Source: Myxococcus hansupus (GTDB lineage: Bacteria; Myxococcota; Myxococcia; Myxococcales; Myxococcaceae). From it: a stretch of 64,000 nt of DNA. This document shows, one piece after another, positions 7,052-40,150 of this stretch (positions are counted from its first letter, which is position 1; the number at the start of each line of letters is the position of its first letter). Under the pieces are notes generated by a model, which was given only the letters and a program-made list of their open reading frames with translations, searched no databases and was not told the DNA's origin. The stretch covers positions 3,306,501 through 3,370,500 of the forward strand of contig NZ_CP012109.1 in the NCBI RefSeq assembly GCF_000280925.3. Direction: 5' to 3'. Position numbers and translations under genes: made by a program.

Positions 7052-7060
7052 GCGTGTTTC

Positions 7061-8723: not shown

Positions 8724-8974
8724 TGCGGTGGCGTCGAAACCAATCAACGGAGAATCTACGTTACGGTCTGCCCAGGAATCGTTGTGCCTGGACCGTCCGG
8801 TGGACGTCGCGCAGCGAGCCTTCGATGACGCCGATCGTCCATACCTTGGCGTGGTTCGCGCCTCTCCACCGAACGGTCGGACTTGGTTCCGTATCTCGAA
8901 TTCAATGGCAGTCCGAAGTCGAGGCAGATTTGCGATTGCGGTAGAGCACCTTGGCGATACCTGCTTTGCCTGCG
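8724..8974. other. Atypical lower-GC intergenic stretch at the cluster edge
   Basis: These 251 bp separate the membrane protein gene from the end of the PKS operon. By eye they are clearly lower in GC than the surroundings. Short open frames cross them on both strands, but none has a ribosome site, third-position GC bias or a recognisable family, so I call no gene. Decayed coding or mobile-element sequence is possible. Confidence 0.4.
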
Positions 8975-11416
8975 CTACGCGCCGGGCATGAGTCCACGCC
9001 ATCGCGCTTCGAGGATGCGGGCCGCGTTCTCCATCACATGGTTCGCGAGCACGTCGACGTGCCGGTTGCGCCAGTCCTCCAGCGGCGTGCCCTTCACCGA
9101 GCGATTGAACGAGCCGAGCGCCGGGCCGCTGTGAATCTGGAAGTTGACCCTGTCCGCGGCATCGCCTCTTCGCGCGCGGCGCATGGTGTCCACGAAGTAC
9201 CAGCGGAAGACGAGCGCCATCCGGTGTCGCGGATTCTTCTGGGCGCGGTCGAGCTGCGACGGGTCGGTCCGTGCGTAGTACGCCTGCGTCTCCGCCCACG
9301 CCGCATCGATGGGCTTCTTGAAATACTGCTTCTCGATTTGCTCACGCGTCGCCGTATCGATGGCTTCGAGTGACTCGTGACGTTGATACAACTCGTACAG
9401 CTTGTTCCCTCGGGCCGGGAAGAAGACGCCCTTGCGAAACACCTGGATGCGCGCGCCCAGCTCGAACATGTCGCCCGCTGGTGCCATCGCGAAGTCCTGG
9501 ATGTCCGCGTCCGCGAGCATGTCCTTCACCAGGTCGCTGGTGCCCGCTTGGGGCGTGCACTGGTTGATGGACCCCGTGAGGATGAAATCCGCGCCGAGGA
9601 TGAACGAGGCCGCGGCGGCCTCTGGCGTGCCAATCCCTCCCGCTGCACCTACGCGGATACGCACCGGATACCCAAACTCGGTCATGGCCTCGTCGCGCAG
9701 GTGCATCATCGCGGGAAGCAGGCTGAAGGCGACGGCCTTGTCGGTATGGCCTCCCGAGTCAGCCTCGGCGCAGAGGTCATCCGCCATGGGCAGCCGCGCC
9801 GCGGCCCGTGCCTCTTCGTCGGTGATGAGTCCCTTCTCCTGGATCGCCTGGACGATGCGCGCGGGCGGCGGCGCGAGAAACTGCCGCGCGACCTCGGGCC
9901 GGGACAGCTTCGCCATCAGTCGATTCGCCGCGACGGCCCGGCCACCTTCCAACCGCGCCCCCTTGAGCCTGTATCGGACCAGGGCGGGTGTGAGCACCGT
10001 GTACGCGGAGGCTTCGACGCTGCGAACGCCGAGCCGAAGGAAGAGGTCGACCGTGCGTTCCTCAGTCGCGGGGTGGTTGACGTTGTGGAGGAGGTTCACG
10101 CCCCAGGGGGCGCCTGGGGGAAGGGCGGCCTGGATTCTCCGGAGGCCTGATTCAATGTCCTCGAGGCTCAGCCCCCCGGACCCGAAGTAGCTCAACAGGC
10201 CCGCGCGTCCCATCTGGATGACCAGCTCCGGAGACGCAATGCCCTTCACCATGGCCCCTGCGACATAAGCAAGGCGCACCCCGTGTTCCACGCGGAACGT
10301 CGCGTCACCGAGTTGCTCGGCGTGGATTCCGTGTCGTGGGGGCGTTTGTCCCCGCGCCGGCTGTTTTACCTGCGCGTGGACCTCATAAGGGGCTGGGCGC
10401 GGAGGTTCGGCTGGACGCGATGTCCCCGTCGTCTCTCGCGGAACGCGACCTTCTGGGGGGACGTAGTCCCGGAGCACGGCCTCCAGTTCCGTGGCCTTGG
10501 TGATGGCCGTCACGGGCGTGCCGAGCGTCTGGAAGAACTTGGCGAGCGGTGCTCCAGGGCCCATTTCGAAGACGCGGCGTGCCCCGCTGCGCAGCGCGTT
10601 CATGTTGTCGAGCCAGCGCACCGAGCCCGCAATCTGCCGGACCAGGTTCTCTGTCAGCGCATCGGACGTATGGAATGCACCCGTGAAGTTCGACGTCACG
10701 GCTGTCGCGAGCTCCGGCCGGAGCTTCCCAGCGAGTGCCGCGAGACTGGCACGAAACGCGGGCTCGATGGACTGCATCAGGCTCGAATGAAAAGGCGCGC
10801 TGACCTGGAGCCGGATGAAGGTCAGCGTGGGCATCGCCTCCGCGAGCGCCGCCTTGGCCCGGTCGATGGACTCCGCCGTGCCACTGATGACGACCTGGTT
10901 TCGCGAGTTGGCGTTGGCGACCTCCGCTCCCGCACGGAGGGCAAGCTGAAGCGCCGGGGTGCCCTGGATGTCATCGGCAACCAAAGCGGCCATGGCGCCC
11001 TTGCCGGACGGCACCGCCTGCTGCATCAGCGCCCCACGCCTGCGCACGAGCCGCACCGCGTCCGCGAAGGGCATGACACCCGCCGCCACGAGCGCCGAGT
11101 ACTCGCCCAGACTGTGGCCACCAAACGCACGGGCTTGAAGTCCGAAGACCTCGACCGCCGTCCTGTACGCGGCGACCTCCATTGTGAGGATGCACGGTTG
11201 CGTGAACTCGGTCAGGTTCAGCCGCGCGTCTTTTTCGAAACACAGGCGCGCGAGGTCCTCGCCCGTGGCGTCGCTGGCTTCCTCGAACGTCCGCCGAGCC
11301 GCAGGCCACTGTTTGTGGAAGTCCGCCCCCATGCCCGGACGCTGTGAGCCCTGGCCGGGAAACACGACGGCATCGTGCGCCATGTCGTGGCGCTCCTTTC
11401 CCGAAAGTGAACTCAT
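8975..11416 (-). CDS. Trans-acting acyltransferase/enoyl reductase (AT-ER) of a trans-AT PKS
   Basis: Bifunctional 813-aa protein that supplies the activities missing from the megasynthases. Residues about 12-320 are a FabD-type malonyl-CoA:ACP transacylase, with VVFPGQGSQ, the nucleophile in GGHSLGEYSALVAAGV (Ser about 102) and the His motif SAPFHSSLM. Residues about 360-810 are a PfaD-type flavin-dependent enoyl reductase of the 2-nitropropane dioxygenase fold (AGMVKG-like start, IQMGRAGLLSYFGSGGLSLE, RIRVGAAGGIGTPEAAAASF). AT-ER fusions of this kind are a hallmark of trans-AT PKS clusters. The ATG overlaps the PKS C stop by four bases; an internal ATG at 11383 has AAGGAG upstream and may be the real start. 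It is the last gene of the operon. Confidence 0.95.
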   Translation of the reverse strand: MSSLSGKERHDMAHDAVVFPGQGSQRPGMGADFHKQWPAARRTFEEASDATGEDLARLCFEKDARLNLTEFTQPCILTMEVAAYRTAVEVFGLQARAFGGHSLGEYSALVAAGVMPFADAVRLVRRRGALMQQAVPSGKGAMAALVADDIQGTPALQLALRAGAEVANANSRNQVVISGTAESIDRAKAALAEAMPTLTFIRLQVSAPFHSSLMQSIEPAFRASLAALAGKLRPELATAVTSNFTGAFHTSDALTENLVRQIAGSVRWLDNMNALRSGARRVFEMGPGAPLAKFFQTLGTPVTAITKATELEAVLRDYVPPEGRVPRETTGTSRPAEPPRPAPYEVHAQVKQPARGQTPPRHGIHAEQLGDATFRVEHGVRLAYVAGAMVKGIASPELVIQMGRAGLLSYFGSGGLSLEDIESGLRRIQAALPPGAPWGVNLLHNVNHPATEERTVDLFLRLGVRSVEASAYTVLTPALVRYRLKGARLEGGRAVAANRLMAKLSRPEVARQFLAPPPARIVQAIQEKGLITDEEARAAARLPMADDLCAEADSGGHTDKAVAFSLLPAMMHLRDEAMTEFGYPVRIRVGAAGGIGTPEAAAASFILGADFILTGSINQCTPQAGTSDLVKDMLADADIQDFAMAPAGDMFELGARIQVFRKGVFFPARGNKLYELYQRHESLEAIDTATREQIEKQYFKKPIDAAWAETQAYYARTDPSQLDRAQKNPRHRMALVFRWYFVDTMRRARRGDAADRVNFQIHSGPALGSFNRSVKGTPLEDWRNRHVDVLANHVMENAARILEARWRGLMPGA

Positions 11417-14400
11417 CCCGCCCGAGCCTTCGCATCCGTCACGAGCACTGATGCCGCTGTCCGAGGCGCCCCAGGTGGCGGCGGTACGTAGCCGTTCTCG
11501 ATGCAGTGATCGAGGTAGACGGGGAGGAGCTGCGCGATCGTCGGACAGTGGATGCCCACGGGAGCCAGGACGCTCCGCGTATAGGTGCAGTCCGCGTACG
11601 AGCTCTCCTCGTAGTGAATCTTCCCGAAGATCTCGACGCCGTACTTGAACACCTCCAACGTTTGGCTCTCATAGGGCGCGTCGGTGCCCGGCCGCCGCAA
11701 TGAACGGTCGGTCGCCATGCGGAAGTAGTCGTCGATGGGAACGAGGCGGATGTCGTAGCCGAAGTCCCGGATGCCATTGACGACGTCGTAGTAGCGCCGG
11801 ATGTCCGGGTTGGTGAGGTGGTAGGTCTCCCGGTACGACGGCCGCTGAAGCGCCAGGTGAATCATCGCGGCCGTCACGTAGTCGACCGGCGTGATGTCCC
11901 AGTGCACGGGGGAGAGCATCGACACGCCCGTGTCGATGACGGTCTTCACGATGTCGTAGTAGACGCCTTTGACGCTGACTTCCGCGAAGGGATACCGGCC
12001 GTTGGTGCCGTCGCCCATGATGTTGCCCGGGCGGAAGATGTTCCACACGAGCCCTCGCGAGCTGGCTTCGCGGATGAGCTTCTCCGCCTGGTACTTCGTC
12101 TCTTGATAGGGCAGGTGGTCGTAGCCCTGGCCCAGGTCTAGGTCCTTCTCCGTGAAGGGCGGATGGTTGAAGTTGAGCCGGTCCCCCATGGCGCTGAAGC
12201 TCGACACGTAGACCATGTATCGGTGCTTCGTCAGGAGCGCGAAGTCCACGACGCGGCGGGTGCCCTCGACGTTGATGGGCGCCAGCGCCTCGTAGAAGGT
12301 CACCAGGGTGGTCTTGCCCGCCGCGTGGAACGTGACATCCGTCTCGGCGGCGAGCCGGGCATACGTCTCCGCGTCGAGCCCGAAGCGGTCCAGGGTGACG
12401 TCACCTAGCAGCGGCGTGACGCGGCGCTGGAAGGCCTTCGTGAGGCGGCCCTGGGGGTCGTACGTCTGAAGGAAGTAGAGAATGCGCTTCCGTGCCGCAT
12501 CGACGCTCTCGCCACGCACCAGACAGGCGATGCGTGCCTCCGTGGTGTCGAGGAGGTCATGAAGCAGCTTCCCCCCGAGCACCCCCGTCACCCCCGTGAT
12601 GAAGATGTGCTGGACGGGGAAGGGCGCGTCCCGCGTGAGTTTCTCCGGCGTGCCGAGGGGGACGGAGGGTTCCGTCGGTGCGCGAGGCTCGACAAGAGGT
12701 GTCGGTGTGACGGCGCGTTCCTGGATGTAGCCCGCCTGGACGATGTGCTCCACGAACGTGCGGATGGTCGTGTACTCCTGCATCGCCGTGGCCGGGACGC
12801 GAGCACCGTAGAGCTTCATCAACCGGTTGAGCATCCGGACCGACGCGACGGAGTCGAAGCCGAAGTCGAGGAAGTCCGCGTCGAGGTCCAACTCGGACTC
12901 AGGCAGCTTCGTCAGCTCCGCGAAGATGCGCGTGACCTGGCTTTCCAACCGCGTGCGCAGGTCATCGGAGGACTCGGCAACGGGGGCGGGTCGCGCTGGT
13001 TCGACAGGGGGAGCCGAAGTGTGTCGTGGAGCCGTCATCGTCGCGGGGAGTGGCCGCTGCGCGCGCTGGAACTCCTCGGGCACGATCCAGTACCGCTCCC
13101 GCGCGAAGGGGTAGGCGGGCAGACTGACAATCTGGCCCCGCCGTGCGCCGCGCAGCGCTTCCCAGTCGATGATCCAACCCTGCGTCCAGAACTCGCCCAG
13201 CCGTGTCAGGTGTCCACGGTCGAAAAGACTCCGCAGATAATCCCTGTCCGTCTCCGTCTCTCCTGGGAGGTCATCGGTCTCCTGGTAGGAGCGCGCGACC
13301 GCTGAGAATCCACCAGGGACCTTCTGCCCGGCGAGGAACGTCTCGAGCTGACCCGCCAGTTCTTCGCGAGACCCTGTCACCAGGGCCAGCCGGTGCTCGA
13401 AGGCCTCGCGGCCCACCATCAACGTCCAAGCGACATCGGCCAGGGACGTGCGCTGTCCCCGTTCGGTGCGCAGGAAGCGGAGCAGGTTGCCGGCCGCCGC
13501 CTCCAGCCGATCCGCACGGCGGGCCGAGAGCAAGATGAGCCGCGGTCCCTCCGGGTCCGCCCGCGCCGTGGTGTCGAGGTGCTCTTCGAGAATCACGTGG
13601 GCATTCGACCCGCCCGCGCCAAAGGAGCTGACCGTCGCGAGCCGCGGACGCGTCGCATCCCCCATGGCCCCGCGAAGCCATGGGCGGACGCCGCGCACGA
13701 GATAGAAAGGGCTCTGGCCAAAGTCGATGTTCGGATTGACCGTCTCCGCGTGCAGCGAAGGCACGAGCGTCTCGTGTTGGAGCTGGAGCAGTGCCTTGAC
13801 GATGCCCGTCGCCCCAGCCGCGGCCTCCAGGTGACCGACGTTCGATTTCGCGGACCCGATGGCACAGAACTGCCGGTCCTGCGTGAAGCGCCGGTAGGCC
13901 TTCGTCAGCGCGGTGATTTCAATCGGGTCGCCCAGTGAGGTCCCCGTGCCATGCGCCTCCACGTAGCTCACCGCGCGCGGATGGACACCGGCCTGGTCGA
14001 GCGCCTCGGAGATGAGGTCCGCCTGCGCATGGGGATTGGGGACGGTGAAGCCGTGGGTGTGTCCGCCGTGGTTGATGGTGCTCGCGCGGATGACGCCGTA
14101 GATGCGGTCTCCGTCCGCGCGTGCGTCCTCGAGCGGCTTGAGAATCAGCGCGACCACGCCCTCTCCAGGGACGTAGCCGTCACCCCCCGCGCCGAAGGAG
14201 CGGCACCGGCCGTCGCTCGACGCGAACCGGCCATAGGCCATGAGCTGATACTTCCCGGGATGGATGGAGACGTTGACGCCGCCCGCGATGGCGTAGGCGC
14301 ATTCTCCGCGTCGGAGGCTCTCGCAGGCGAGGTGAACCGCCGTCAGCGACGCGGAGCATGCGGTGTCCACCGCGAAGCTCGGACCGTTGAATCCGAGGTG

Positions 14401-16068
14401 ATACGAGACGCGGTTGGGGACCGCCCAGTATCCCGCGATGGGGATGTCGACGAAGAAGCTGTACTCGCCATAGATGACGCCCGCGAAGACGCCCGCGTCC
14501 TTCAAACCGCGCCGCGCCGCGCTGGCCCGGATGCGCTGGGGCGTGTATCCGGCGTCCTCGATGGCGGCCCAGGCCGTCTCCAGGAAGAGCCGCTGTTGCG
14601 GGTCCATCGTCTCCGCTTCCTTCGGGGTGATGCTGAAGAAGCGCGGGTCGAACTTGTCGACGTCGGACAGGAAGCCGCCCCATTTCGCGTACGTGGTGCC
14701 AGGGGCGTCACGGTCCTCGCTGAGATAGGCCTCGTGGTTCCACCGGTCCTTGGGGACCTCCACGATGCCGTCGCGGCCCGCGAGCAGGTTCTCCCAGAAC
14801 GCCTCGTTGTCCGAGGCCATGGGGTATCGCCCCGACATGCCAATCACGGCGATGTCCTGATGCTCGGCGTTTCGGGACACCGGGCGAGGCGACGCACGTC
14901 GTTCCTTCGTGGGCACGGCATCCTCGTCGTGTGTGGGCGGTGTGGGGGGCACAGCGGCGCTAGGAAGTGGCGCGCGCTCAGGAGGGGCCCCGACCAGCGC
15001 GGACAACCTCGCTGGATGGTGCTGGGCGAGGTATCGCGCGAGTTCGTTCACGGTCTGGTACTCGAACAGCAGCGTCTTCGGAAGCGCACCGAAGGCCTCT
15101 TCGAGCTGCTGGTTGAAGCGCTGGATGAGGACCGAGTCGATGCCGTACTCCTGCAGCGGCGTCCGGGTTCGGATGCGCTCGGCCGGCAATCGGAACGCGG
15201 CCGCGAGCTCTCGCTTCATGAGGTCTTCCGCGAGGCGGACCAGACCTTCGTCGATGGCAGTCATGGTGGATGGGGTGGGACGTGCGTCCGCGGCCGTCAC
15301 GGGCGCCGAACGAGGGAGTGGGGACTCCGTGATGCGCTGTGACAGGTCCGCCAGGTTCATTCCGACCGTGAAGGCCGAGACATCGAGCGCAGAGCCGAGG
15401 TCCTGGTTCAACTGCTCGACCAGGGTCGCGCGAGTCACCTCATCGAACCCCAGTTCCTCCGAGGGCGCGCGGAGGTCGAGCTCTTCCTCCGTGACGCTGA
15501 GCAGCCGCGCGGCGGCCCGGAGGACACCTGTTGGAGGCGACCCCACGGGCCTGGCACGGGCCGGCGCCTCTTCATGCGAAGGGAGCGGGGCCTCTGGCAA
15601 CCAGCAGCGTTCGCGAGCGAAGGCGTAGCCGGGCAGGGGAATCCGGCGCGGCGAGGCGCCTGCATACAGTCCACGGAAATCAAAGGTCGCGCCCGAGACC
15701 CATGCGGCACCCGTTGCGTGCAGCTCCGCGTCTGGCGAAAGCGCAAGCGGGGATGACATCGCGTCCGGGTTTGCTTCGCCGTGGTGAACACCGAGCGCGG
15801 GCGTGCCCGCTGCCACGGAGGCGAGTCCGTCGCGCAGGGCGTCCACCGAGCCGGCGATGATGGCAACGCGGTGCTCGAAGAGTACGCGTCCGGTTTGTAG
15901 CGTCGCCGCGAGGTCATGGAGTGACGTCTGGGGATGCTCCGTGAGGAACCGCGCCAACGCCTTCGCGGACCGGCGGAGCGAGTCCTGGGTCTTCGCGGAG
16001 AGGGGGACCAGGACTTTGGAAGGCCTGGTCTCGGGCTGGGCCCTGGCCGAGACGTGCTCTTCGACCAC
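11413..16068 (-). CDS. PKS C, C-terminal part: KS linker, ACP-like, ACP, KS8, ACP, thioester reductase
   Basis: Downstream piece of a frameshifted PKS, 1551 aa as read. It is really the continuation of the gene beginning at 23267, because bases 16069-16216 in this frame encode the missing end of KS7 (FFVNTELRDW, then SSFGFSGTNCHLV). Domains in order, numbered for the joined protein: an ACP-like domain (about 2608) with GFDEV where the modified Ser should be, so probably inactive; an ACP with GIDSV (about 2708); KS8 (about 2825-3230) with DTACSAS, EAHGTGT and SNVGH all intact; an ACP with GFDSV (about 3472); and a terminal thioester reductase (about 3550-3951) with the NAD(P)H loop FITGVTGVLGG and catalytic YQETK. 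The reductase would release the chain as an aldehyde or alcohol. Confidence 0.93.
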   Translation of the reverse strand: MVEEHVSARAQPETRPSKVLVPLSAKTQDSLRRSAKALARFLTEHPQTSLHDLAATLQTGRVLFEHRVAIIAGSVDALRDGLASVAAGTPALGVHHGEANPDAMSSPLALSPDAELHATGAAWVSGATFDFRGLYAGASPRRIPLPGYAFARERCWLPEAPLPSHEEAPARARPVGSPPTGVLRAAARLLSVTEEELDLRAPSEELGFDEVTRATLVEQLNQDLGSALDVSAFTVGMNLADLSQRITESPLPRSAPVTAADARPTPSTMTAIDEGLVRLAEDLMKRELAAAFRLPAERIRTRTPLQEYGIDSVLIQRFNQQLEEAFGALPKTLLFEYQTVNELARYLAQHHPARLSALVGAPPERAPLPSAAVPPTPPTHDEDAVPTKERRASPRPVSRNAEHQDIAVIGMSGRYPMASDNEAFWENLLAGRDGIVEVPKDRWNHEAYLSEDRDAPGTTYAKWGGFLSDVDKFDPRFFSITPKEAETMDPQQRLFLETAWAAIEDAGYTPQRIRASAARRGLKDAGVFAGVIYGEYSFFVDIPIAGYWAVPNRVSYHLGFNGPSFAVDTACSASLTAVHLACESLRRGECAYAIAGGVNVSIHPGKYQLMAYGRFASSDGRCRSFGAGGDGYVPGEGVVALILKPLEDARADGDRIYGVIRASTINHGGHTHGFTVPNPHAQADLISEALDQAGVHPRAVSYVEAHGTGTSLGDPIEITALTKAYRRFTQDRQFCAIGSAKSNVGHLEAAAGATGIVKALLQLQHETLVPSLHAETVNPNIDFGQSPFYLVRGVRPWLRGAMGDATRPRLATVSSFGAGGSNAHVILEEHLDTTARADPEGPRLILLSARRADRLEAAAGNLLRFLRTERGQRTSLADVAWTLMVGREAFEHRLALVTGSREELAGQLETFLAGQKVPGGFSAVARSYQETDDLPGETETDRDYLRSLFDRGHLTRLGEFWTQGWIIDWEALRGARRGQIVSLPAYPFARERYWIVPEEFQRAQRPLPATMTAPRHTSAPPVEPARPAPVAESSDDLRTRLESQVTRIFAELTKLPESELDLDADFLDFGFDSVASVRMLNRLMKLYGARVPATAMQEYTTIRTFVEHIVQAGYIQERAVTPTPLVEPRAPTEPSVPLGTPEKLTRDAPFPVQHIFITGVTGVLGGKLLHDLLDTTEARIACLVRGESVDAARKRILYFLQTYDPQGRLTKAFQRRVTPLLGDVTLDRFGLDAETYARLAAETDVTFHAAGKTTLVTFYEALAPINVEGTRRVVDFALLTKHRYMVYVSSFSAMGDRLNFNHPPFTEKDLDLGQGYDHLPYQETKYQAEKLIREASSRGLVWNIFRPGNIMGDGTNGRYPFAEVSVKGVYYDIVKTVIDTGVSMLSPVHWDITPVDYVTAAMIHLALQRPSYRETYHLTNPDIRRYYDVVNGIRDFGYDIRLVPIDDYFRMATDRSLRRPGTDAPYESQTLEVFKYGVEIFGKIHYEESSYADCTYTRSVLAPVGIHCPTIAQLLPVYLDHCIENGYVPPPPGAPRTAASVLVTDAKARAG

Positions 16069-19000
16069 GAGGTGGCAGTTCGTGCCGCTGAAGCCGAACG
16101 AGCTGATGGCGGCCCGTCGAGGGCCATGGCTCGTCCAGTCACGCAGCTCCGTGTTGACGAAGAAGGGCGTCTTGTCGAAGTCGATGTGCCGGTTGGGCGT
16201 CTGGAAGTGGAGCGACGGGGGAGCTGGCCTTGCCGAAGCGACAGCAGGACCTTGATGAGGCTCGCGACGCCCGCGGCGTGGGATGCGTGCCCGATGTTCG
16301 ACTTGATGGACCCGATCGCGCAGAACCGCAGGCGGCCGGTCGAACGGCGGAACGCGGCGGTCAGCGCCTCGAGTTCGATGGGGTCTCCCAACCGCGTGCC
16401 CGTGCCATGTGTCTCCACATAACCAAGGGTCTCCGGAGGGATGCCGTAGCGCTCGTAGACCTCCGCTTCGAGTTCCTGCTGTGACAGCGAGCTGGGCGCG
16501 GTGATGCCGTTGGTTCGCCCGTCCTGGTTGACGGCGGACCCCTTGATGACGCCGTGAATCGGATCGCCATCCTCGAGCGCGCGTGCAAGCGGCTTGAGCA
16601 CCACGACGCCCACGCCTTCGCCAATCACGAAGCCGTCACCCGCGTCATCAAACGACCTGCACCGCCCCGTGGGGGACAGCATCCCGAGCGACGACGCCAG
16701 CAGGTGGTACTCCGGCGTCGTGAAGACCGACACGCCCCCGGCGAGCGCCACTTCACATTCGCCGCTCAGCAAGCTCTGACAGGCTTGATGGAGCGCGACC
16801 AGGGAGGACGAGCACGCCGTGTCGACCGCGACGCACGGCCCCTTCAGGTTGAGGAAGTAGGCGACTCGGGCAGGAAGGATGGCGAGGCTGTTGCCCGTGA
16901 ACACGTGATGCGAGCCCGCGAGACCCCGCTGCCGGACGAGGCTCGCGTAGTCAGGTGAGGTCGCGCCAATGAAGACGCCGCACCGGCGGTTCGACAAGCT
17001 CCGAGCATCCAACCCCGCATCCTCCAGTGCCTTCCAGCTCTCTTCGAGGAGCAGGCGCTGCTGCGGATCCATGAAGTCCGCTTCCGCGGGCACGATGTTG
17101 AAGAACAGCGGGTCGAACCGGTCCACGTCCGAGAGGTAGCCGCCCCATTTCGAGTACGTTTTGCCCGGCGACGGCGGCCCCGCTTGGAAGTGGTCCTCGA
17201 TGCGCCAGCGATCAACGGGAATCTCCGTGACGGCATCGTGGCCAGCGCACAGGTTCTTCCACAGCGCGCGATAGTCTCCGGCGCCTGGGAATCGTCCCGC
17301 CATTCCGATGACGGCGATGTCCATGGATGCGCCTGGGGCGGAGCGCGGCGCGGCGGGGGCGGGGGCGGGCCGTACGGCCTCTTCCGAGAGGTGTGATGGC
17401 GCGGCCGCCTGGGCTCCAAGCGACATGGCATGTCGTGCCAGGGCTCGGACGGACGAATGGTCGAAGAGCACCGTCGGCTTGAGCTCCAGGGCGAATCGCG
17501 CGTTGAGCTGGTCGACAATCTTCACCGCCAGCAGGGAGTCGACGCCGTACTCCGAGAACGCCAGGTCGGGCCGAATGTCGTCGACGGTCGTCCCAAGCCC
17601 GGCGGCGACGATCGCGGCGACCTCACGCTCCAGCGTTGCCGGTGTCCCTGGCTGAGGGCCGCCGCTCGACGGAGCGGCCGTCGAGTGGGTGGGTTTCGTG
17701 AGCGGGATGCTCGCGGGTTGCTTCGATGGACGCCCGTCGTTCGCCGCCAGGATGACGCGTTGGCTGGGGTCCGGGTCGGCGGAGAGCCCGGGGCCGTAGG
17801 CCATGACGTGGCTGTAGCCACTGCGCAGCAGCGCCGTACGCCAGCCCTCCGAGGAGAGCAGCGGGGAGTTCGGGATGCGCCGTTCGGGGTCGCGGTAGCG
17901 ATGCCAGCCCTCAAGCAGCCCGAACGTGAGTGCCAGCACCTCTGTGTTCGTGGTCGCCTCACCGAGGACCAGGAGCCCGTCGCTGACGAGGAGGTTCTTG
18001 ACCCTGCCCAACGCCTCATCGACGTCCGAGGCGACATGCAATGCATTCGCGGCGAAGACCACGTCGAAGCTGTTCGGCGTGAACCCCTGCGCGGCCGGGT
18101 CCTTCTCGATGTCGAGGCTGCGAAACCGTGCGAACGGATACGCATTGCCAAAGGTCTCCCGGCCATGGGCGACGAAGCCATCGGCGACATCGGTGTAATG
18201 CGCCTCGACGTCGACACCCAGGCTGGCGAGTGCCTCGAACACCGGGCCGGAGGTTCCACCCGTCCCAGCGCCAACCTCCAGGACACGAACGGGTCGCCGG
18301 CCCGCCGAGGCGCGGAGTTTCACGGCGGTCGAGATGAGCCGGGCCATGAGCGCGTTGGTGAACGCGTAGGAGCGGCTGCCTCGGTAGATGGCGCTGGTCA
18401 GCTCCAGGCTCGCGGCGGGAAAGAGCACGCTCGTCGCCGAGCGCTCGCCCCGCAGTGTTTCAGGGTACGCCGCGAGGCAGGTGTCGAGCAGCCGCACATA
18501 CGGTGCTGTTTCAGGGTGCCGCTCCAAGAGTGTCGAGCGCAGCTCGGACGGTGACCGAGATGCTCCCGTCGAACGGAGGCCCGTGTCCGTGCGTTCGAGG
18601 TAGCCATGGCGTTCGAGAACCTCCAGGCATGCGGCGAGGAAGCGGTCGAACCGAGGCTGCAGGCGCAAGCGCTCCTTCAGGGCCCGCGCCGTGGTGAAGT
18701 GTCCCGTGGGAGGCAGCCCGAGGTCACTGAGTCGCGCATGGAGCGCCGCCGCCGAGTACTCCGCCAGCAGCGGTCCACCGGCTTCAAGGGCCTCCGAGGT
18801 GGGCGTGAGCGAAGCTTCGAAGGCGCGTTGGACGTCGGTGGTGAAGCGAGGAGGTTCGACCCAGAATCGCTTGCGCTCGAAAGGGATTCCCGGGACGGGG
18901 ACCCGGCGAACGGGGCCACGAGAGAGGGCGCGCCAATCCATCCGGGTTCCTCGGACCCACAGCTCGGCGGCGCCATCGAGGTCACCGGCGACGTACCGAT

Positions 19001-22000
19001 CCTGGAGCAGACGCTCATCCCCGGGAGAGGTCGCGGCGCCGTGGTGGATGCCACCCTGGCCCTTCAGGTATCGCTCCAGTTGTGCGGCGGCATCCCCCGC
19101 GCTCGAAGCGACGAGCGCGAGCCGCATCTCTCGCTCTGGGCGTCCCACCCGCAGCGTTCGAGCGACGTCTGCGAAGTCCTCCGCGCCGAGGGTCTGAAGG
19201 AAGCGCACCAGGAGGTCCGTGTAGCGGCGTAGCTGCGCTTCGGACCTCGCGGACAGGACGAACAGCTCCCGGTCCGAGGGGCGCGCCGTCGGCTGACCCC
19301 GTTCGATGTGTTCCTCGAGGACGACGTGCGCGTTGGAGCCTCCGGCGCCAAAGGAGCTGACGCCAGCGCGGCGAGGAAGCACTCCGTTCGCACCCTCCAT
19401 CCGGGGCCATGGTTCGGAGGCCTGGGGCACACGGAAGGGTGTCGATGCGAAGTCGATGGTCGGGTTGAGCGCCGCGGAATGAAGGGAGGGCGCAATCCGG
19501 CCGTGCCGAAGCTGGAGCAGGGCTCGCGTCACGGCTGCGACGCCCGCCGCTGCTTCGAGGTGCCCGATGTTCGACTTCACCGAACCGATGGGCAGCGGAT
19601 GGGTGCGCCCCGCGAAGGCGCGGCTGAGCCCGACCACCTCGACCGGGTCCCCGAGCGCGGTCCCTGTTCCGTGGGCCTCGATGTAGCCGATGCTGTCGGG
19701 CGTGGCGTCCGCAGCTTCGAGCGCTCGGCGGATGGCATCTGCCTGCGCGGTGGGGTGGGGCACGGTGTATCCGGCCGCGCGCCCCCCGTGATTGATCGCC
19801 GTGCCGCGAATGACACCGTGAACGGTGTCACCGTCCGCGAGCGCCTGATCGAGCCGCTTGAGGAACAGGGCTCCAACACCCTCGCCCGGGACGTAACCAT
19901 CACCGCCCTCTCCGAAGGAGCGGCACCGCCCATCGGAGGAGGTCATGTTCATTTGCCGGAGCAGCAGATACTTGTCCGGGTGGAGCAGCAGGTTGACGCC
20001 ACCCGCGATGGCCGCGTCACATTCACCTCGGGCGAGGCTGGCGCAGGCGAGGTGGATGGCCGTCAGCGATGAAGAGCACGCGGTGTCCACCGCCATGCTC
20101 GGGCCCACGAAGTCGAAGAAGTACGAGACCCGGTTCGCGACGGAAGAGAAGAGTGACGACGTGGCGACGGGGGTGGCGTGGCGCGCCGCCTCCGCGCCGA
20201 CGAGCCGGTAGTCCCCCCACATGACGCCGACGAAGACGCCGACCCGGTTCCTCGGGGCCGTGAAGTCATCCGGTTGGTAGCCCGCGTGCTCGACCGCGCG
20301 ATAGGCCGTCTCCAGAAACAGTCGTTCTTGAGGGTCGATGAGCGGCGCGGTCCCCGGAGGAATCCGGAAGAAGAGCGGGTCGAACTGGTCCACTTCGGAC
20401 AGGAAGCCGCCGAACCCGCACAGCGGGTTGCCATCCCCTGGATACGCGTTGGAGGGCCAACGCTCGGGCGGCACTTCCGTCACGCTGTCTCGGCCTGCCT
20501 CGAGGTTCGCCCAGAATGCGTCCACGTCCTCGGCGCCGGGGTATCTGCCGCTGAGCCCCACCACGGCGATGTCGACGCGGTGGTTCGCCACGGGAGCCGC
20601 GGGCTTTGGGCGTTGAACGCCGAGGTGTGCCTGAAGCCGTTCCGTGTCGCCCCAGGCGACGGCGAGTTGGGGCCGGGCGCCGCCAAGGCACGCATCGAGC
20701 AGGTCCAGCCCGGCTTCATCGGGAAGCAGGCTCAGGCCCGTGCTCCGCCGAAGCGCGTCCGCGTGCGCGGCGGAAACACTCATGCCTCCATCGCGCCAGA
20801 GAGGCCAGTTGATGCTGACGGTCCGCCAGGCGTGTTCGCCTCGGTGACGCTGGGCCTCGCATTCCTCCGCGAAGGCATCGAGGAATCGGTTCGCCGCCGC
20901 GTAGTCACTCTGCCCGGGATTCCCGATGACCGCGGACAGCGATGAGAACAGGACGAGCCATTCGAGGTCATTGTCCACCGCACGCACCAGATTCAGCGCA
21001 CCGGCGACCTTGGGGCGCATGACGGCCGCCGCCGATTCATTGGGCGTTCCTCGCAGGAAGCCATCCTTGAGGACGCCTGCCGCGTGGATGATGGCGTGAA
21101 GGCCGCCGAAGCGTTCGCGAGCGCGCCGCACCACGTCCCGAGCTTCTGTTTCAACGGACACGTCGGCGCGGAAGTAGACCGCTTCACCACCGAGTGACCG
21201 GAGCTCCTCGCAGAAGGACGCTGCCTCCGTGTTTCGCTCATGGCGTCCCGTCAGGACGATTCGCGCCCGGTGCCGCGTGGCCAGACGACGCGCGATACGG
21301 CGCCCCAGCCCACCAATGCCCCCGGTGATGAGGACCACGGCCTCATCACGCAGCACCGCGTCAGCGCGCGGCGCGGCCACGGGAGCGAGCCTGCGGACCT
21401 CGCGGCGGCCCTGTGTGTAGCGAACCTCTGTGTCCGGTGCATCGAGCGAGACCTCGCGCGCCGTGAGGCCGAGCAGCTCACGCGCACTGGGGGCGTCGAG
21501 GAGCACGCTCCGCATGCTGGGATGCTTGAGCTCTAGCCGCGTCGAACGCGCAAGTCCCCCCAGTGCCGCTGCGCACGTCCGGCCCGACGCGGTCTCAGCG
21601 GGAAGGACCGCCAGCAGCCGGTCACTCACGGACGGCAGATGGGCGAGCGTCCTCGCCAGTTCTCGAAAGGGCAGGAGGACGGACTCGAGGCTCGCGGCCC
21701 CGGCGAATTCGCTCGCGCGGAGATCGCCATACCCCCAGCAGTAGAGGGTCACGTCGAAGGGGGGCTGGCTTGCTTGAAGCTGCCGGATGACGCGGTGCAG
21801 GTCCTCCGGTTCAGCGGCGTTGACGGTGAACGTGTCCCCATTCGCGCTGAAGTGCGTGCCCCGGCGGACGCGCACCACGGAGGCCCCGGGCGGGACGTCC
21901 AGGGTCAGCCCTTCGTCCTCGAACAGGAGGATGCGCTCCAGGGGACGGGCTTCCGCCGCTGGCAACGCAGCGGACTCCCAGTCGAAGCCCAGGAACAGTG

Positions 22001-26200: not shown

Positions 26201-28951
26201 CAGGAGCCCCTGGTAGAACCCCATCCGGCCCGGATGGACCTGACCGCCGTCATCGGAGCGCGTGAGGTCGCAGAGGTCGAGCAGTCCATCGACGCCGTGC
26301 GCTTCCGCGACCAGTTCACGTGCCAACGCGGCCGCGGCCTGGAAGTCGTCTCGCGCCAGGGCGGGCCTGCCAGAGGCGGTGCTCCGGCTGACACGGCCCA
26401 CTTCGACGACATGCCGTTCGCTGGCGGCCAAGGAGAGCAGGTGCTCGCGGAAGGACGCGGACGCGGAGGCATCGTGCAGGATGATGAGGCGCCGCCTGTT
26501 CAGCGGTCCCTGCGCGGCCTCGGTGAGGGGCGCTTCTTGCCAGACGCGTCCAAAGCAGCGCTCGACGAGGCCAGATGGCCCTGCGTCCTGCTTCGCCCGT
26601 GGCGGTGGGAACTTCGCTTCGGCGGGCGTGGTTTCGAACCAGAAGCGCTCTCGTGCGAAGGGATACCCGGGCAGGGGGATTCTTCTGCCGCCATTGGGAC
26701 GGAGCTGTGCCCAGTCGATGTCCGAACCGGACGTCCAGAACGCGGCGAGCCGTTCCAGCTTCCCACGCTCGAAGAGGCTGGCGACGTAGGCCCGGTCTTC
26801 CGCATCGGCGCCGCTGAGCCGGGGGCCCTTCGTGGCTTCCTCGCTGATGTACACCTGCTCCGCGCGTTCATCTCCGGCGACGAACGCCGCGAGCTTCGAG
26901 CGCAGGTCCTCGTGGTCGCGGACGATCAGCGCCAAGCGGTCTGGCATGGCCTCGCGACCCACCTGCAAGGTGTGCGCAATCTCGCTGAGCGGTGGCCGGT
27001 AGGTCTCCAGTGCATCGCGGAGCTTCGCGGCGTACTCCCGAAGCCGTTCACGGTTCTTCGCGGAGAGCAGGATGAGTTCACGCCCCGAGGGAGCGGGAGC
27101 TGCACCTCGCCGCGTATCAACGTACTCCTCGATGACGACGTGTCCGTTGGAGCCCCCCGCACCGAAGGAGCTCACCGTTGCGCGTCGAGGCGCCTCCTGG
27201 CCATTGGCTAGCACGGGGCGCCGCCAGGGCGTCAGCGCGGTGACGACGTGGAAGGGCGAGTTGTCGAAGTCGATCGCGGGGTTGAGCGGGGTGCTGTGAA
27301 GCGACGGTGCCAACGTCTGGTGTTCGAGCTGCAAGAGCACCTTCGTCAGCGCGGCGATTCCGGCGGCGGCTTCCAGGTGCCCGATGTTCGACTTCACCGA
27401 GCCCATGGGGCACACCCCGATGCCCGTCAGGTGTCCCTGGAACGCCTGATGGAGCCCGGCCATCTCGATGGGGTCTCCCAGCGAGGTCCCCGTCCCGTGG
27501 GCCTCGACGTAGCTGATGGTCGCCGGGTCCACGTCCGCTCGCTTCAGCGCCCTGCGAATCAGCGCCGCCTGTGCGTTCGGGTTCGGGACGGTGAAGCCAT
27601 TCGCCCGCCCGCCGTGATTGAGGGCGGTGCCTTTGATGACGGCGTAGATGGGGTCGCCATCGCGCTCCGCGTCCTCGAGCCGGCGGAGGACCACCGCTCC
27701 CACGCCTTCGCCGGGCACGTAACCATCCCCGCCTTCGCCAAAGCTCCGGCACCGGCCCTCACCCGAGAGAAACCGCCAGTTCCCCAACGTGAGGTACTTG
27801 TACGGGTGGGTGGAGAGATTGACCCCGCCCGCCAGGGCCAGGCGGCACTCGCCGCTGCGCAGGCTCTCACACGCTAGGTGCAGCGCCGTCAGCGACGACG
27901 AGCACGCCGTGTCCACCGCCATGCTCGGGCCCTGGAAGTCGAAGAAGTAGGAGACGCGATTCGCGATGACCCAATGGGCCGCCACGGGGAGCGCCTCGTG
28001 GCCCAGGCGCACCTGTTCAGGGCCGTGGAGCTGGTAGGTGTCCCACATCACGCCAACGAAGACGCCGGCTTCCTCCGGCGCGATGCCGCTGCGGCGCAGG
28101 CCCGCCCGGGCGTACCCCGCGTCTTCGAGCGCGCTCCACGCTGTTTGGAGGAACAGGCGCTCCTGCGGGTCCAGGATCTCCGCCTCGCGCGGCGAGATGT
28201 TGAAGAAGAGCGGGTCGAACATGTCCGCGTCCTCGACGAACCCGCCCCACTTGCTGATGGCGGTTCCCTTCGTGCCCGCCACCGGATGGAAGTAACGCTC
28301 CCAATCCCAGCGCTCGCGGGGAATCTCGGTGATGCAGTCACGGCCTTCCGAGAGGACGCGCCAGTACTCTTCGAGGTTCCGCGCGCCCGGGTAGCGGCCG
28401 CTCACTCCGACAATGGCGATGTCCCCCGAAAATGACGGCGCGTACGAGGCTCGGGGCTGCTCCCGGGGGCTGGGCGGAGCGACTGGCGCGGGAACGGGCG
28501 CCCGAGGCTTCACCGGCTCGGGAGCCACTGGCCGCGCTTCCAGCAGCGCGCGCATCCGGTCCCCGTGGCTCTCCGCGAAGTAGGTGGCCAGCGCGTCGAG
28601 GGTGGGGTGCTCGAAGAAGAGCGTGGGAAACAGCTCCATCCCCAGCGCCCGTTCGAGGTGCTGGGTCGCCGAGAGCAGCGATGCCGAGCTCGCGCCCAGG
28701 CTCATGAACGCGCTGTCGGCGGGAATCTCCCCGTGAAGTTGAAGCACCTGCCGGAGCCGGGTTTCGAGATACCGGAAGACCTGCTCGTGCAGCGATGACG
28801 ACGTCAGCTCGGCGTCGCGGGCCTCGGTGGGCCGGGGCGCGTCTGGCGCGGAGGACTGCAGCTCCAGTCGGGCCAGGAGTTCCATCGCCGCCTCGACCGA
28901 GAGCTCCTTGCGTGCGACGCGCTCGTAGATGTCCCGTTCACTCAGACTCAT
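23264..28951 (-). CDS. PKS B: ACP, KS4, KR, ACP, KS5
   Basis: Trans-AT PKS subunit of 1895 aa. It begins with a short helical docking-like segment (ERDIYERVARKELSVEAAME), then an ACP with the atypical motif SLGASSAS (about 87; the Ser is kept, the preceding Asp is replaced). KS4 (about 165-590) follows, with DTACSSS (about 348), EAHGTGT and SNIGH. KR2 has ISGGTRGLGAG (about 1028) and the catalytic Tyr in SDYALANAF (about 1190). An ACP with GVDSV (about 1338) precedes KS5 (about 1420-1840), which has the full Cys-His-His set and lies near the C terminus. There is no acyltransferase. The first ACP completes the module whose KS3 ends PKS A, and KS5 is completed by the domains opening PKS C, so modules are split across all three proteins. 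The ATG is 12 bp after PKS A and the stop overlaps the PKS C start. Confidence 0.95.
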   Translation of the reverse strand: MSLSERDIYERVARKELSVEAAMELLARLELQSSAPDAPRPTEARDAELTSSSLHEQVFRYLETRLRQVLQLHGEIPADSAFMSLGASSASLLSATQHLERALGMELFPTLFFEHPTLDALATYFAESHGDRMRALLEARPVAPEPVKPRAPVPAPVAPPSPREQPRASYAPSFSGDIAIVGVSGRYPGARNLEEYWRVLSEGRDCITEIPRERWDWERYFHPVAGTKGTAISKWGGFVEDADMFDPLFFNISPREAEILDPQERLFLQTAWSALEDAGYARAGLRRSGIAPEEAGVFVGVMWDTYQLHGPEQVRLGHEALPVAAHWVIANRVSYFFDFQGPSMAVDTACSSSLTALHLACESLRSGECRLALAGGVNLSTHPYKYLTLGNWRFLSGEGRCRSFGEGGDGYVPGEGVGAVVLRRLEDAERDGDPIYAVIKGTALNHGGRANGFTVPNPNAQAALIRRALKRADVDPATISYVEAHGTGTSLGDPIEMAGLHQAFQGHLTGIGVCPMGSVKSNIGHLEAAAGIAALTKVLLQLEHQTLAPSLHSTPLNPAIDFDNSPFHVVTALTPWRRPVLANGQEAPRRATVSSFGAGGSNGHVVIEEYVDTRRGAAPAPSGRELILLSAKNRERLREYAAKLRDALETYRPPLSEIAHTLQVGREAMPDRLALIVRDHEDLRSKLAAFVAGDERAEQVYISEEATKGPRLSGADAEDRAYVASLFERGKLERLAAFWTSGSDIDWAQLRPNGGRRIPLPGYPFARERFWFETTPAEAKFPPPRAKQDAGPSGLVERCFGRVWQEAPLTEAAQGPLNRRRLIILHDASASASFREHLLSLAASERHVVEVGRVSRSTASGRPALARDDFQAAAALARELVAEAHGVDGLLDLCDLTRSDDGGQVHPGRMGFYQGLLAGRDTRSLLLLHVTAGLLSGETLTGAPIHGLVTALSGEYRGVTVRSVDVEHADLPPEHLFALLAQEATDVRTPGTDARQARYRKGRREALTLRELPLAQRLQVSPDKTYVISGGTRGLGAGFARMLVERGARKLALLGAQTLPPRAAWQRVAADESVDGRKVRALLELEARGAEVRVYTGPLLDRGALRRFFDDVRSTLGPVAGVLHCAGTVSDESPAFLHKSPEGIGRVLEPKLGGTQVLADLLEDDQPDFFVLFSSVASIVPNLAVGLSDYALANAFLDRFAEYQHRHGRTGFRALNWPSFRDAGFGETTTAAYRGAQLAALSVEQGFSLFERVLGIDNAPVVLPCLAASDFDASTLLASAASSQAPRPATPASAPRVASDASAKSHAFDALLHLFAAELKLDPARLKGDVRFEEYGVDSVLIASAVKQIETLVGAPIEPGFLLEYPTLGTLSAFLAERHPSRFVTEVAAPSAPVHSTGAFVQPPVKHHAEPPRPPSPSRATVPIAIVGMACRFPGGADTARFWETLAHGTSAIREVPTERWDAGRFYSPQPGPGRTNSKWGGFVDGIDLFDPAYFRISESFAIQMDPLQRLMLETSLLATLDAGYSREELSNRKVGVYIGARTGAYPNRIEQPEKSTIVGIGQNFIGARISDYFNWRGNNLVIDTACSSSLVSVHLACQALREGEIEAALAGGVDLILDELPYLTLSAAGALSPDGRCHTFDERANGFVPGEGAGALLLKRLDDALRDGDRIHAVIRGSAVNNDGRTMGITTPNMEAQVEVIEAALAKAGVTANTLSYVEAHGTGTMIGDPIELKALATVFKRATEARGFCAVGSVKTNIGHLLSAAGIAGLVKTALALDRKQLPPTLHCERPNPRFAFSESPFYVNRDLRDWHAVEGHPRRAGISAFGFGGTNCHMVLEERPDGTEPGRAPLPAPAFSKQRYLLPARPRNEARAPAMLRFEPIAPSRVNRVSAP

Positions 28952-28963
28952 GTCGGTGTCTCG

Positions 28964-39007
<10,044 letters not shown>

Positions 39008-39371
39008 CAACGATGCGGGGACAGTCGGGCAGTCTGGCGTTGCCCTCGGTGCGGTGGAGTGATTGCGAGCGTGGGGGCCTCGAGGCCTCGGACTCACCAG
39101 GTAGGGGCGGCGTGAAACATGGAACGTGAATCGCGTGGGGGGATCCACAGCATGACATGCCCCAGTGGGAATAACGTAAGCGATAGGTCTGACATTGCTC
39201 TGATACGTGCCGTCGGGTCCGTTTGGGTGTCGTCGTGAACGAACGCACGCTTTTCTTGAATTGACGTGTTGCGTCAATCATTGATCATGATTGGCGTTGA
39301 CCCACCGGAATGGCGCCGGAATACTGAATCAACTGCGTGCGAATGGGCCACAATCCATTTGCCTCCCCCCT
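39008..39371. other. 364-bp divergent regulatory region of the PKS operon
   Basis: This gap separates PKS A (minus) from the type II thioesterase gene (plus). It contains nested palindromes at 39261-39293 and is visibly lower in GC than the coding DNA around 39130-39330. A minus-strand element resembling a sigma-54 promoter near 39200-39215 has the wrong spacing (11 bases between GG and GC). If transcription of PKS A starts near the palindromes its leader would be over 200 nt. Confidence 0.55.
39261..39293. promoter_or_regulatory. Overlapping palindromes, candidate operator of the PKS cluster
   Basis: TTGACGTGTTGCGTCAA (39261-39277) has perfect 6-bp arms and a 5-base spacer. CAATCATTGATCATGATTG (39275-39293) has perfect 7-bp arms and a 5-base spacer and overlaps it by three bases. 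TCAATCATTGA (39274-39284) is a third palindrome across the junction. Such an arrangement in a divergent promoter region is typical of dimeric repressors or activators. No matching regulator gene is adjacent. The TTGACG arm also gives a -35-like hexamer on both strands. Confidence 0.5.
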
Positions 39372-40136
39372 ATGCGTGAAAAATGGATCTACCGTCGGTC
39401 GATCCCGACGGCGCGACTACGGCTGTTTTGCTTTCCGTACGCGGGGGGCGGTGCGTCCATCTACAGCCGGTGGCAGGACGCGTTCGCGGACGACATCGAG
39501 GTGTGCGCGGTGGAACTTCCGGGCCGGCGCGCCCGGCTTCGTGAAACGCCCATTCGTCAGGCGGAGGCCCTGGTCCAGGCCACGGCGGGGGCGCTGTCCG
39601 CGCTTCAGGATCTGCCCTTTGCCTTCTTCGGTCACAGCATGGGCGCGCTGCTGGCCTTCGAGCTGGCCTTGCACCTGCGTCGGGCCGGTCAGCCGGGGCC
39701 GCGCGCGCTCTTCCTCAGCGCCGCGGCGGCGCCCCAGCTCCCTCGGCGGCATCGGCCGATGTGGAACCTTCCCGACGCCGAGTTCCTCAAGGAGCTCCGC
39801 CACTACGGAGGCACGCCCGAGGAGGTCTTCGCCGATCCCGCGATGGTGTCCCTGTTCCTGCCGGCCCTGCGCGCCGACTTCGAGCTCTTCGATACCTACG
39901 CATACGGCGGCGCCACCCTGGAGGACGTCCCCCTTTACGTCTACGGCGGGCGAGACGACGTCCGGGTGACGCCCGGAAGCCTCCGAGCCTGGGGCGAGGT
40001 CGCGCCGGGGCTCCAGGCCGTGGAGCTGTTCCCAGGCGGGCACTTCTATCTGCACGAGCAGCGAGCCGCGCTCATCGCGGGCCTCCGCCGAGAGCTCCAG
40101 GCCCATGTGCCTGGGCATCTCGAGGTCGCCGGGTGA
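39372..40136 (+). CDS. Type II thioesterase (GrsT-like), PKS editing enzyme
   Basis: Stand-alone alpha/beta-hydrolase of 254 aa that typically removes wrong or stalled acyl groups from carrier domains. The triad is visible: Ser in FFGHSMGALLAFELA (about 88), Asp in YGGRDDVRV (about 194) and His in FPGGHFYL (about 222). The N-terminal strand FCFPYAGGGASIYSRW is characteristic of this family. I use the ATG at 39372; a TTG at 39291 lies in the same frame, but the added residues are not family-like. The gene diverges from the PKS operon and shares its control region. Since the PKS already has a terminal reductase for release, this enzyme is probably for editing rather than product release. Confidence 0.93.
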   Translation: MREKWIYRRSIPTARLRLFCFPYAGGGASIYSRWQDAFADDIEVCAVELPGRRARLRETPIRQAEALVQATAGALSALQDLPFAFFGHSMGALLAFELALHLRRAGQPGPRALFLSAAAAPQLPRRHRPMWNLPDAEFLKELRHYGGTPEEVFADPAMVSLFLPALRADFELFDTYAYGGATLEDVPLYVYGGRDDVRVTPGSLRAWGEVAPGLQAVELFPGGHFYLHEQRAALIAGLRRELQAHVPGHLEVAG

Positions 40137-40150
40137 GGGCTCGGGGCGCG

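What the first reader, a model, noticed from the sequence alone, without database searches (positions are those of the whole stretch)
8975..40136. Unrecognised eight-KS trans-AT PKS cluster with reductive release
The sequence shows three megasynthases with eight ketosynthases, all keeping Cys, HGTGT His and the GH His. They carry no working in-line AT and are coupled to an AT-ER protein. The order is KS-(AT)-DH-KR-ACP, KS-DH-ACP, KS|ACP, KS-KR-ACP, KS|DH-ACP-KR, KS-cMT-ACP, KS-ACP*-ACP, KS-ACP-reductase. I cannot match this to a known myxobacterial product, so it may encode an undescribed polyketide with an aldehyde or alcohol end and one alpha-methyl branch.
Basis: partly seen in the sequence, partly recalled or inferred. 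Interest (0 to 1): 0.85.

Follow-up and report, generated by a model that had tools for sequence, protein, structure and literature searches.

The report
Orphan trans-AT polyketide synthase gene cluster
A predatory soil bacterium carries genes for an assembly line, so far without a known product, that seems to build a polyketide and cut it off as an aldehyde or alcohol; the same genes sit in at least four related species, while this genome's copy is split by a one-base frameshift that may be a sequencing slip.

Summary
The observation largely holds. Window 8975-40136 encodes an AT-less (trans-AT) type I PKS: eight ketosynthases with all catalytic residues, a separate AT-ER, one C-methyltransferase, a C-terminal thioester reductase. 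The genome is Myxococcus (Pyxidicoccus) hansupus by exact size. Four amendments. (1) The third megasynthase is split here by a one-base frameshift in KS7 near 16.2 kb; four relatives have it intact and both halves are equally conserved, so it is recent or an assembly error. (2) Comparison with empty sites puts the island at about 8038-44677, adding a flavin monooxygenase, a methyltransferase and a GT87 glycosyltransferase. (3) KS1 plus the dead AT aligns colinearly with the first module of what I take to be the macrolactin synthase, suggesting similar initiation. (4) KS3 and KS5 fall in a clade made only of subunit-terminal KSs, one of which lacks the HGTGT His, so fewer than eight extensions are possible. 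The cluster is in 5 of 27 genomes held of the genus and 5 of 195 of the phylum; no product was found in the papers searched. It is an orphan cluster of a known kind, moderately interesting.

The parts
8038..44677 (.). Extent of the cluster island: present here, absent at the same site in relatives G024, G006 and G021
   Evidence: blastn of window against the G024 site: 1-7128, 7139-8037, then 44678 onward align at 90-94%, the last two about 0.6 kb apart in G024; G006 and G021 likewise lack the middle; tblastn finds none of the cluster proteins in the stretches read
28964..39007 (-). PKS A: KS1 - dead AT - DH - KR - ACP - KS2 - DH - ACP - KS3 (frame open to 39277; ATG at 39007 likely start)
   Evidence: Pfam, profiles, motifs
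36200..37650 (-). Dead AT-like region with the linker behind KS1 (approximate ends), homologous to the first module of a macrolactin-like PKS
   Evidence: Pfam sees only the linker
23264..28951 (-). PKS B: ACP - KS4 - KR - ACP - KS5
   Evidence: Pfam, profiles, motifs
15435..23267 (-). PKS C, first frame: DH - ACP - KR - KS6 - cMT - ACP - KS7 (N-terminal part); meaningful up to about 16.22 kb
11413..16209 (-). PKS C, second frame: rest of KS7 - ACP* (no Ser) - ACP - KS8 - ACP - thioester reductase
16200..16240 (-). One-base frameshift inside KS7 relative to four relatives
   Evidence: pairwise alignments, 4 of 4 relatives
8975..11416 (-). Trans-acting AT fused to PfaD-type enoyl reductase (AT-ER)
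   Evidence: TIGR02814 652.7 bits (cut-off 449.25); TIGR00128 fabD 244.9 bits (under its cut-off 260.9); GHSLGE and PFHS in the sequence
39291..40136 (+). Stand-alone thioesterase, divergent from PKS A
   Evidence: PF00975 162.9 bits; kept in 4 of 4 relatives
40151..41446 (-). Flavin-binding monooxygenase
   Evidence: PF00743 170.3 bits; kept in 4 of 4 relatives; inside the island
41503..43107 (+). SAM methyltransferase whose N-terminal 300 or so residues have no match
   Evidence: strong homologue (E below 1e-250) only in the 5 PKS-bearing genomes of 27; next best 5.6e-13
43126..44679 (+). GT87-family glycosyltransferase
   Evidence: PF09594 73.3 bits; kept in 4 of 4 relatives
7229..8032 (+). 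4'-phosphopantetheinyl transferase next to the island, not part of it
   Evidence: ACPS Pfam match; also in cluster-free G024 and G006, no match in the G021 stretch; no match listed for cluster-bearing G010

Best explanation
An orphan trans-AT type I PKS cluster, kept in few species of the Myxococcus/Pyxidicoccus group. AT-ER loads malonyl onto the AT-less modules (inferred from motifs). KS1, at the bare N-terminus of the first subunit and followed by a dead AT as in a macrolactin-like synthase, starts the chain on a small starter, probably acetate (inferred). Modules 1-5 add and partly reduce or dehydrate units; KS3 and KS5 sit at subunit junctions and perhaps only pass the chain on (inferred). 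Module 6 adds an alpha-methyl branch; modules 7 and 8 have no reductive domain and leave beta-keto units unless a trans enzyme acts. The terminal reductase releases the chain as an aldehyde or primary alcohol (inferred). FMO, methyltransferase and GT87 are candidate tailoring enzymes. In this strain the line works only if the KS7 frameshift is an assembly error.
For: Domain order and catalytic residues; same order in four other species; AT-ER; 1:1 KS orthology in five species, KS2/4/6/8 and KS7 in clades with other AT-less KSs, apart from this genome's cis-AT KSs; KS1 56.6% to the N-terminal KS of a B. velezensis PKS whose gene follows an AT-ER gene, and KS1 plus dead AT colinear with it over 946 columns at 35%; dead-AT part alone 50.8 bits against at most 21.6 in 50 shuffles; TR best solved match MxaA, 151 bits; similar conservation on both sides of the frameshift; empty sites.
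Against: No product, expression, MIBiG or transATor test. TIGR01746 falls just under its cut-off (206.1 against 213.35). DH5 lacks the usual Gln/His after the catalytic Asp in the three species aligned. Module 2 has a DH but no KR. The frame of PKS C is broken in this genome. KS3 and KS5 keep all catalytic residues, so a non-elongating role is not shown; three other subunit-terminal KSs of the set fall outside their clade. KS3's best solved matches mix AT-less and cis-AT PKSs. The dead-AT query alone did not bring up the B. velezensis record in the plasmid collection at E 0.001, and Pfam does not call it an AT. That the B. velezensis genes make macrolactin is recalled, not annotated.
Confidence: 0.7

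Rival explanations
1. The frameshift is real, so the cluster is a recent pseudogene in this strain and makes nothing or only a truncated product.
For: One-base difference from 4 of 4 relatives inside KS7; the assembly had 138x PacBio coverage with Quiver polishing (passages of PMC4765838).
Against: In 3 of 4 alignments the difference lies beside a short homopolymer, and the assembly is PacBio-only; the rest of the operon is open and similarly conserved on both sides.
Confidence: 0.35
2. One reading: eight extensions in strict order, with an aldehyde or alcohol end.
For: All eight KS keep the catalytic triad.
Against: KS3 and KS5 lie in a 9-row clade (100/100) made only of subunit-terminal KSs (four of the nine rows are KS3/KS5 of the window and P. 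fallax), including a bacillaene-type KS reading NGSGS for HGTGT (long branch, placed at 90/76) and a G152 KS reading GA for GH; KS5 is followed by a split-off DH-ACP as in G152 and the bacillaene-type PKS.
Confidence: 0.25
3. The cluster makes an already described myxobacterial compound whose cluster I did not recognise.
For: P. fallax DSM 14698 holds the cluster, and other strains of that species make known macrolide antibiotics; most subscription papers are not in the library searched; the survey lists trans-AT products such as myxovirescin and rhizopodin (their trans-AT nature recalled) for strains it does not name there.
Against: The P. fallax compounds described are arabinosylated 12-membered macrolides, not expected from reductive release; the survey section assigns no such product to this genome.
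Confidence: 0.15
4. It is a member of the dawenol type of myxobacterial polyene synthases.
For: Dawenol is a polyene from a 'highly unusual' PKS of Stigmatella (title seen in a reference list).
Against: A survey reports the dawenol cluster absent from this genome. I did not compare the sequences.
Confidence: 0.04

Closest known systems
Macrolactin synthase (MlnA/MlnB) of Bacillus velezensis (identity of the genes recalled from position and order)
   Same: First subunit starts with a bare KS followed by a dead AT-like region, colinear over 946 columns at 35%; separate AT-ER gene; split modules (PMC4397504 passages)
   Different: No thioester reductase in the two PKS genes read; different module order after module 1; macrolactin has 11 KS and is a macrolactone; AT-ER lies before, not behind, the PKS genes
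Bacillaene synthase, B. velezensis (identity recalled from gene content)
   Same: Subunit-terminal KS after KR-ACP, next subunit begins with DH-ACP, as KS5 here; KS clades shared
   Different: NRPS and HMG-synthase-type genes; no thioester reductase found in the part read
Myxalamid reductase MxaA and myxochelin MxcG (reductive release)
   Same: Thioester reductase after a carrier domain
   Different: Those sit on NRPS modules (recalled); here the TR follows an AT-less PKS module
Unnamed AT-less PKS clusters in same-family genomes G152, G033, G023
   Same: KS3/KS5-type junction KSs, AT-ER, split modules
   Different: More KSs in G152 and G033 (11 or more each), different order, no TR found in the parts read
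PKS of an Eleftheria terrae plasmid annotated 'thioester reductase domain-containing protein'
   Same: First KS 52% identical to KS1; cMT and a C-terminal TR on one chain; fabD-annotated gene nearby
   Different: Loading ACP in front of the KS, two KSs only, about 700 residues not assigned between the last two ACPs, no dead AT match

Membership tests
trans-AT type I PKS | Modules lack a working AT | tested here: met
   No PF00698 at E 0.001 in PKS A, B, C; remnant in module 1 lacks GHSxG
trans-AT type I PKS | Stand-alone AT encoded nearby | tested here: met
   AT-ER 8975-11416
trans-AT type I PKS | KSs group with trans-AT KSs, not with cis-AT KSs | tested here: met
   KS2, 4, 6, 8 and 7 in supported clades with bacillaene- and thiomarinol-type KSs; KS3/KS5 with KSs of other AT-ER-bearing clusters; KS1 with a Methylosinus KS; none in the main cis-AT clade, though one own-genome reference KS also falls outside that clade. 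KS2's best solved matches include chains named AT-less PKS, PksJ and PksL, above CurL and EryAI; KS3's are mixed
trans-AT type I PKS | Split and unorthodox modules | tested here: met
   KS3|ACP, KS5|DH-ACP-KR, ACP*-ACP
Reductive chain release (thioester reductase) | C-terminal NAD(P)-binding reductase after the last ACP with YxxxK | tested here: met
   PF07993 166.7 bits, cut-off 20.1; TGxTGxLG and YxxxK invariant in five species
Reductive chain release (thioester reductase) | TIGR01746 over its curated cut-off | tested here: not met
   206.1 against 213.35 bits, full-length match 1-369 of 371
Reductive chain release (thioester reductase) | Releases aldehyde or alcohol | not testable with these tools
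   Needs biochemistry
Macrolactin-type starter module | N-terminal KS followed by colinear dead AT-like region | tested here: met
   the plasmid search with the dead AT alone did not list that record
Macrolactin-type starter module | Acetate starter | not testable with these tools
   Needs labelled feeding
Macrolactin synthase (product class) | Same overall domain order and macrolactone release | tested here: not met
   TR end here; order differs after module 1
Dawenol synthase | Sequence identity to BGC0000044 | not tested
   No sequence compared; a survey reports absence in this genome
Dehydrating bimodule with non-elongating KS (KS5) | KS-KR-ACP, then KS at subunit end, then DH-ACP at the next subunit start | tested here: met
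Dehydrating bimodule with non-elongating KS (KS5) | KS lacks the HGTGT His | tested here: not met
   EAHGTGT kept in KS5

The most novel reading that the evidence does not exclude
A bacterial modular trans-AT line that ends in an alpha-methylated, unreduced run of beta-keto units released by a reductase, so that the product folds into a methylated aromatic or pyrone-type aldehyde, a modular counterpart of fungal non-reducing synthases with cMT and reductase (that analogy is recalled), started by a macrolactin-type KS plus dead AT.
Probability: 0.1. Interest if true: 0.7.

Novelty: new member of a known kind. Interest (0 to 1): 0.42.

Why it matters
It gives a bounded (36.6 kb), five-species orphan cluster with a likely release chemistry and four intact relatives to test, P. 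fallax DSM 14698 among them. The shared KS1 plus dead-AT module links its initiation to a macrolactin-like line and makes the role of dead AT domains in chain initiation testable by deletion. It also warns that counting intact KS motifs can overstate the number of extensions in split trans-AT lines.

Tried and rejected
Rejected: three intact megasynthases in this genome; cis-AT system with lost ATs (KS clades); dead AT as chance similarity (controls; against: Pfam silent, 15% against trans-ATs alone); TE/FMO/MT/GT87 as unrelated neighbours (missing from the empty sites together with the PKS genes; strong MT hit only in the five PKS-bearing genomes of 27).

Led nowhere: viral contig scan with the TR tail (one pattern match, no relative); the one genome-contig scan used two narrow patterns and gave one relative, P. 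fallax; a search for KASIII (PF08541) in the own genome as a possible starter enzyme gave 8 places, none in the window; the dead-AT query in plasmids found weak matches in 8 records. The ten paper searches gave no paper on this cluster. A first set of domain profiles was misplaced by wrong offsets and was remade; only one search is used. Rows dropped before the KS trees: one search kept only KSs with recognisable Cys and HGTGT motifs, which removes some reference KSs, non-elongating ones above all; the own KS7 row was cut at the frameshift; one search collected 85 rows without such a motif filter, of which one search left out 7 named in its drop list; one search has no own KS7 row (P. fallax stands for it) and no macrolactin row. 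The label END covers 15 rows, of which 12 are true subunit ends; nine of those 12 are the KS3/KS5 clade. Structure prediction was not used: its stated rule admits only window sequence and loci from certain tools, and a single-sequence fold seemed of little value.
Full report
Identity and place. The window lies in a single-contig genome of 9,490,432 bp at 3306501-3370500. The genome paper of Myxococcus hansupus gives exactly that size and PacBio-only sequencing at 138x with Quiver polishing (passages of PMC4765838); a later paper calls it Pyxidicoccus hansupus.

The observation. One minus-strand row of genes runs PKS A (28964-39007, open to 39277), PKS B (23264-28951), PKS C (11413-23267 in two frames) and AT-ER (8975-11416), with four-base overlaps or a 12-base gap between genes. 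Pfam, and profiles built here from the five species, give: A = KS1-(dead AT)-DH-KR-ACP-KS2-DH-ACP-KS3; B = ACP-KS4-KR-ACP-KS5; C = DH-ACP-KR-KS6-cMT-ACP-KS7-ACP*-ACP-KS8-ACP-TR. All eight KSs keep Cys and both His motifs. PF00698 is not found in them. ACP* lacks the Ser in 5 of 5 species. The three KRs keep YxxxN. DH1 and DH2 look complete; DH5 has His and Asp but not the usual Gln/His in the three species aligned.

The frameshift. Stop-to-stop frames of PKS C are 2661 and 1740 aa here but 3993, 4068, 4105 and 4300 aa in the four relatives. Alignment shows a one-base difference in 4 of 4 relatives near 16.2 kb, inside KS7. Amino-acid identity to the relatives is 71.9-72.4% before and 72.1-73.7% after the break, with a similar codon-position pattern. 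So the change is recent or an assembly error; I cannot tell which.

Boundaries. In the close relative G024 the window's 1-8037 and 44678 onward lie about 0.6 kb apart; G006 and G021 also lack the middle, and tblastn finds none of the cluster proteins in the stretches read. The island therefore holds AT-ER, the PKSs, the thioesterase, FMO, methyltransferase and GT87. The PPTase at 7229 is outside: it is also in G024 and G006. The response regulator beside it is in 27 of 27 genomes of the genus, the methyltransferase with strong similarity only in the 5 with the PKS.

Distribution. The dead-AT/DH/KR part of PKS A matches at 51-65% identity in G002, G010, G012 and G020; the next genome reaches 33%, on the DH/KR part only (100 genomes, own included; 83 of 100 have some match, as expected for such domains). 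The TR tail at E up to 1e-60 is in 5 of 195 genomes held of the phylum, all of this genus; the genus has 27. The flanking kinase and regulator are beside the cluster in three of the four; in G012 the regulator is on another contig. Cluster proteins are roughly 62-80% identical per aligned piece between own and relatives, the flanking histidine kinase 72.5-74.6%, which fits common descent with losses elsewhere; the own regulator is closest to that of cluster-free G024 (97%). Common descent is inference.

KS trees. In one search (64 rows) each of the eight KSs is 1:1 orthologous in five species; KS2, 4, 6, 8 fall in a 100/100 clade with bacillaene-, thiomarinol-, Azospirillum and Methylosinus KSs, KS7 in a second such clade, and KS1 and KS3/KS5 apart from the own cis-AT KSs. 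The product names of these reference clusters are recalled; the records annotate only domains. Of KS7's five outside neighbours there, three directly follow cMT modules, matching its place after the cMT module; its nearest neighbours are mixed. In one search (78 rows) KS3 and KS5 lie in a 100/100 clade of nine rows, all subunit-terminal KSs; four of the nine are KS3 and KS5 of the window and P. fallax, and 3 of the 12 subunit-terminal rows of the set lie elsewhere. One member is a bacillaene-type KS with NGSGS for HGTGT, on a long branch and placed at 90/76; another, from G152, reads GA where others read GH. KS5 sits with G152 and G023 KSs that also follow KS-KR-ACP; in G152 and in the bacillaene-type PKS the next subunit begins with DH-ACP, as here. 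KS3 and KS5 keep their catalytic residues, so a mere transfer role is a hypothesis. By solved structures KS2 prefers AT-less PKSs, KS1 likewise, KS3 gives a mixed list.

Initiation. KS1's best match in the plasmid collection is the N-terminal KS of a B. velezensis PKS whose gene follows an AT-ER gene (56.6%). I take this as macrolactin MlnB from gene order and distance to bacillaene, which is recall, not annotation. PKS A residues 112-1027 align with it colinearly (946 columns, 35%), so the dead AT region is shared; the region alone scores 50.8 bits, E 5e-10, 21% identity, against at most 21.6 bits in 50 shuffles. Against it: the same region alone did not bring up that record in the plasmid collection at E 0.001. 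Nine pooled true ATs match the region at 92% hhalign probability, the six cis-ATs alone at 63%, three trans-ATs alone at 15%, four unrelated domains at most 0.4%; Pfam sees no AT there. A review says macrolactin uses only malonate and acetate (passages of PMC4397504); an acetate starter here is inference.

Release. The C-terminal reductase matches PF07993 well over cut-off, TIGR01746 over its full length but just under cut-off, and MxaA best among solved structures. MxaA is recalled as a four-electron reductase giving an alcohol; whether this one stops at the aldehyde is open.

Literature. A survey of BGCs in 15 species including this one reports no dawenol cluster in it, assigns it no trans-AT product in the section read, and finds no MIBiG hit for 280 of 567 clusters (one section of PMC12211065 read; further passages). 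PMC10435759, PMC6616573, PMC4765838, PMC12224551, PMC9684338, PMC9248904, PMC6163206, PMC4902038, PMC4397504 and PMC9919246 were seen only in passages found by search words. The ten searches were seen as listings with abstract openings. None showed this cluster or its product; most subscription papers are not in that library, and MIBiG was not available.

Verdict. A real, conserved, orphan trans-AT cluster with likely reductive release and a macrolactin-like start; a new member of a known kind, split by a frameshift in this assembly.

Noticed in passing
window 8033-8974: About 0.9 kb between PPTase and AT-ER, with a 214-aa frame (8079-8723) that has no Pfam match and no match in the four relatives' stretches; in G002 and G020 the two genes are only some 25-35 bp apart.
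   Followed up: partly
window 3101-5830: Histidine kinase and sigma-54-type response regulator flank the island; the regulator is in 27 of 27 genomes of the genus.
   Followed up: partly
window 49286-50560: NamZ-type exo-beta-N-acetylmuramidase near the island, conserved in the three cluster-free relatives looked at.
   Followed up: no
window 57501-60089: Clp/AAA+ ATPase (AAA_2, ClpB_D2-small) with a weak Clp_N match; possibly a secretion-type ClpV, not checked.
   Followed up: no
window 47748-49340: Protein with an adenylate/guanylate cyclase catalytic domain.
   Followed up: no
L038, L039, L075: The B. velezensis record called plasmid pDMB05-1 carries genes such as mutS, glnA and rnjA with two PKS clusters; it looks like a piece of chromosome.
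   Followed up: no
L076, 19602-31244: An Eleftheria terrae plasmid carries a two-KS PKS with cMT and a C-terminal thioester reductase; its first KS is 52% identical to KS1.
   Followed up: partly
L053, L054, L060-L065, L068: Unnamed same-family genomes G033 and G152 hold longer AT-less PKS clusters without a TR in the parts read, related through the junction KSs.
   Followed up: partly
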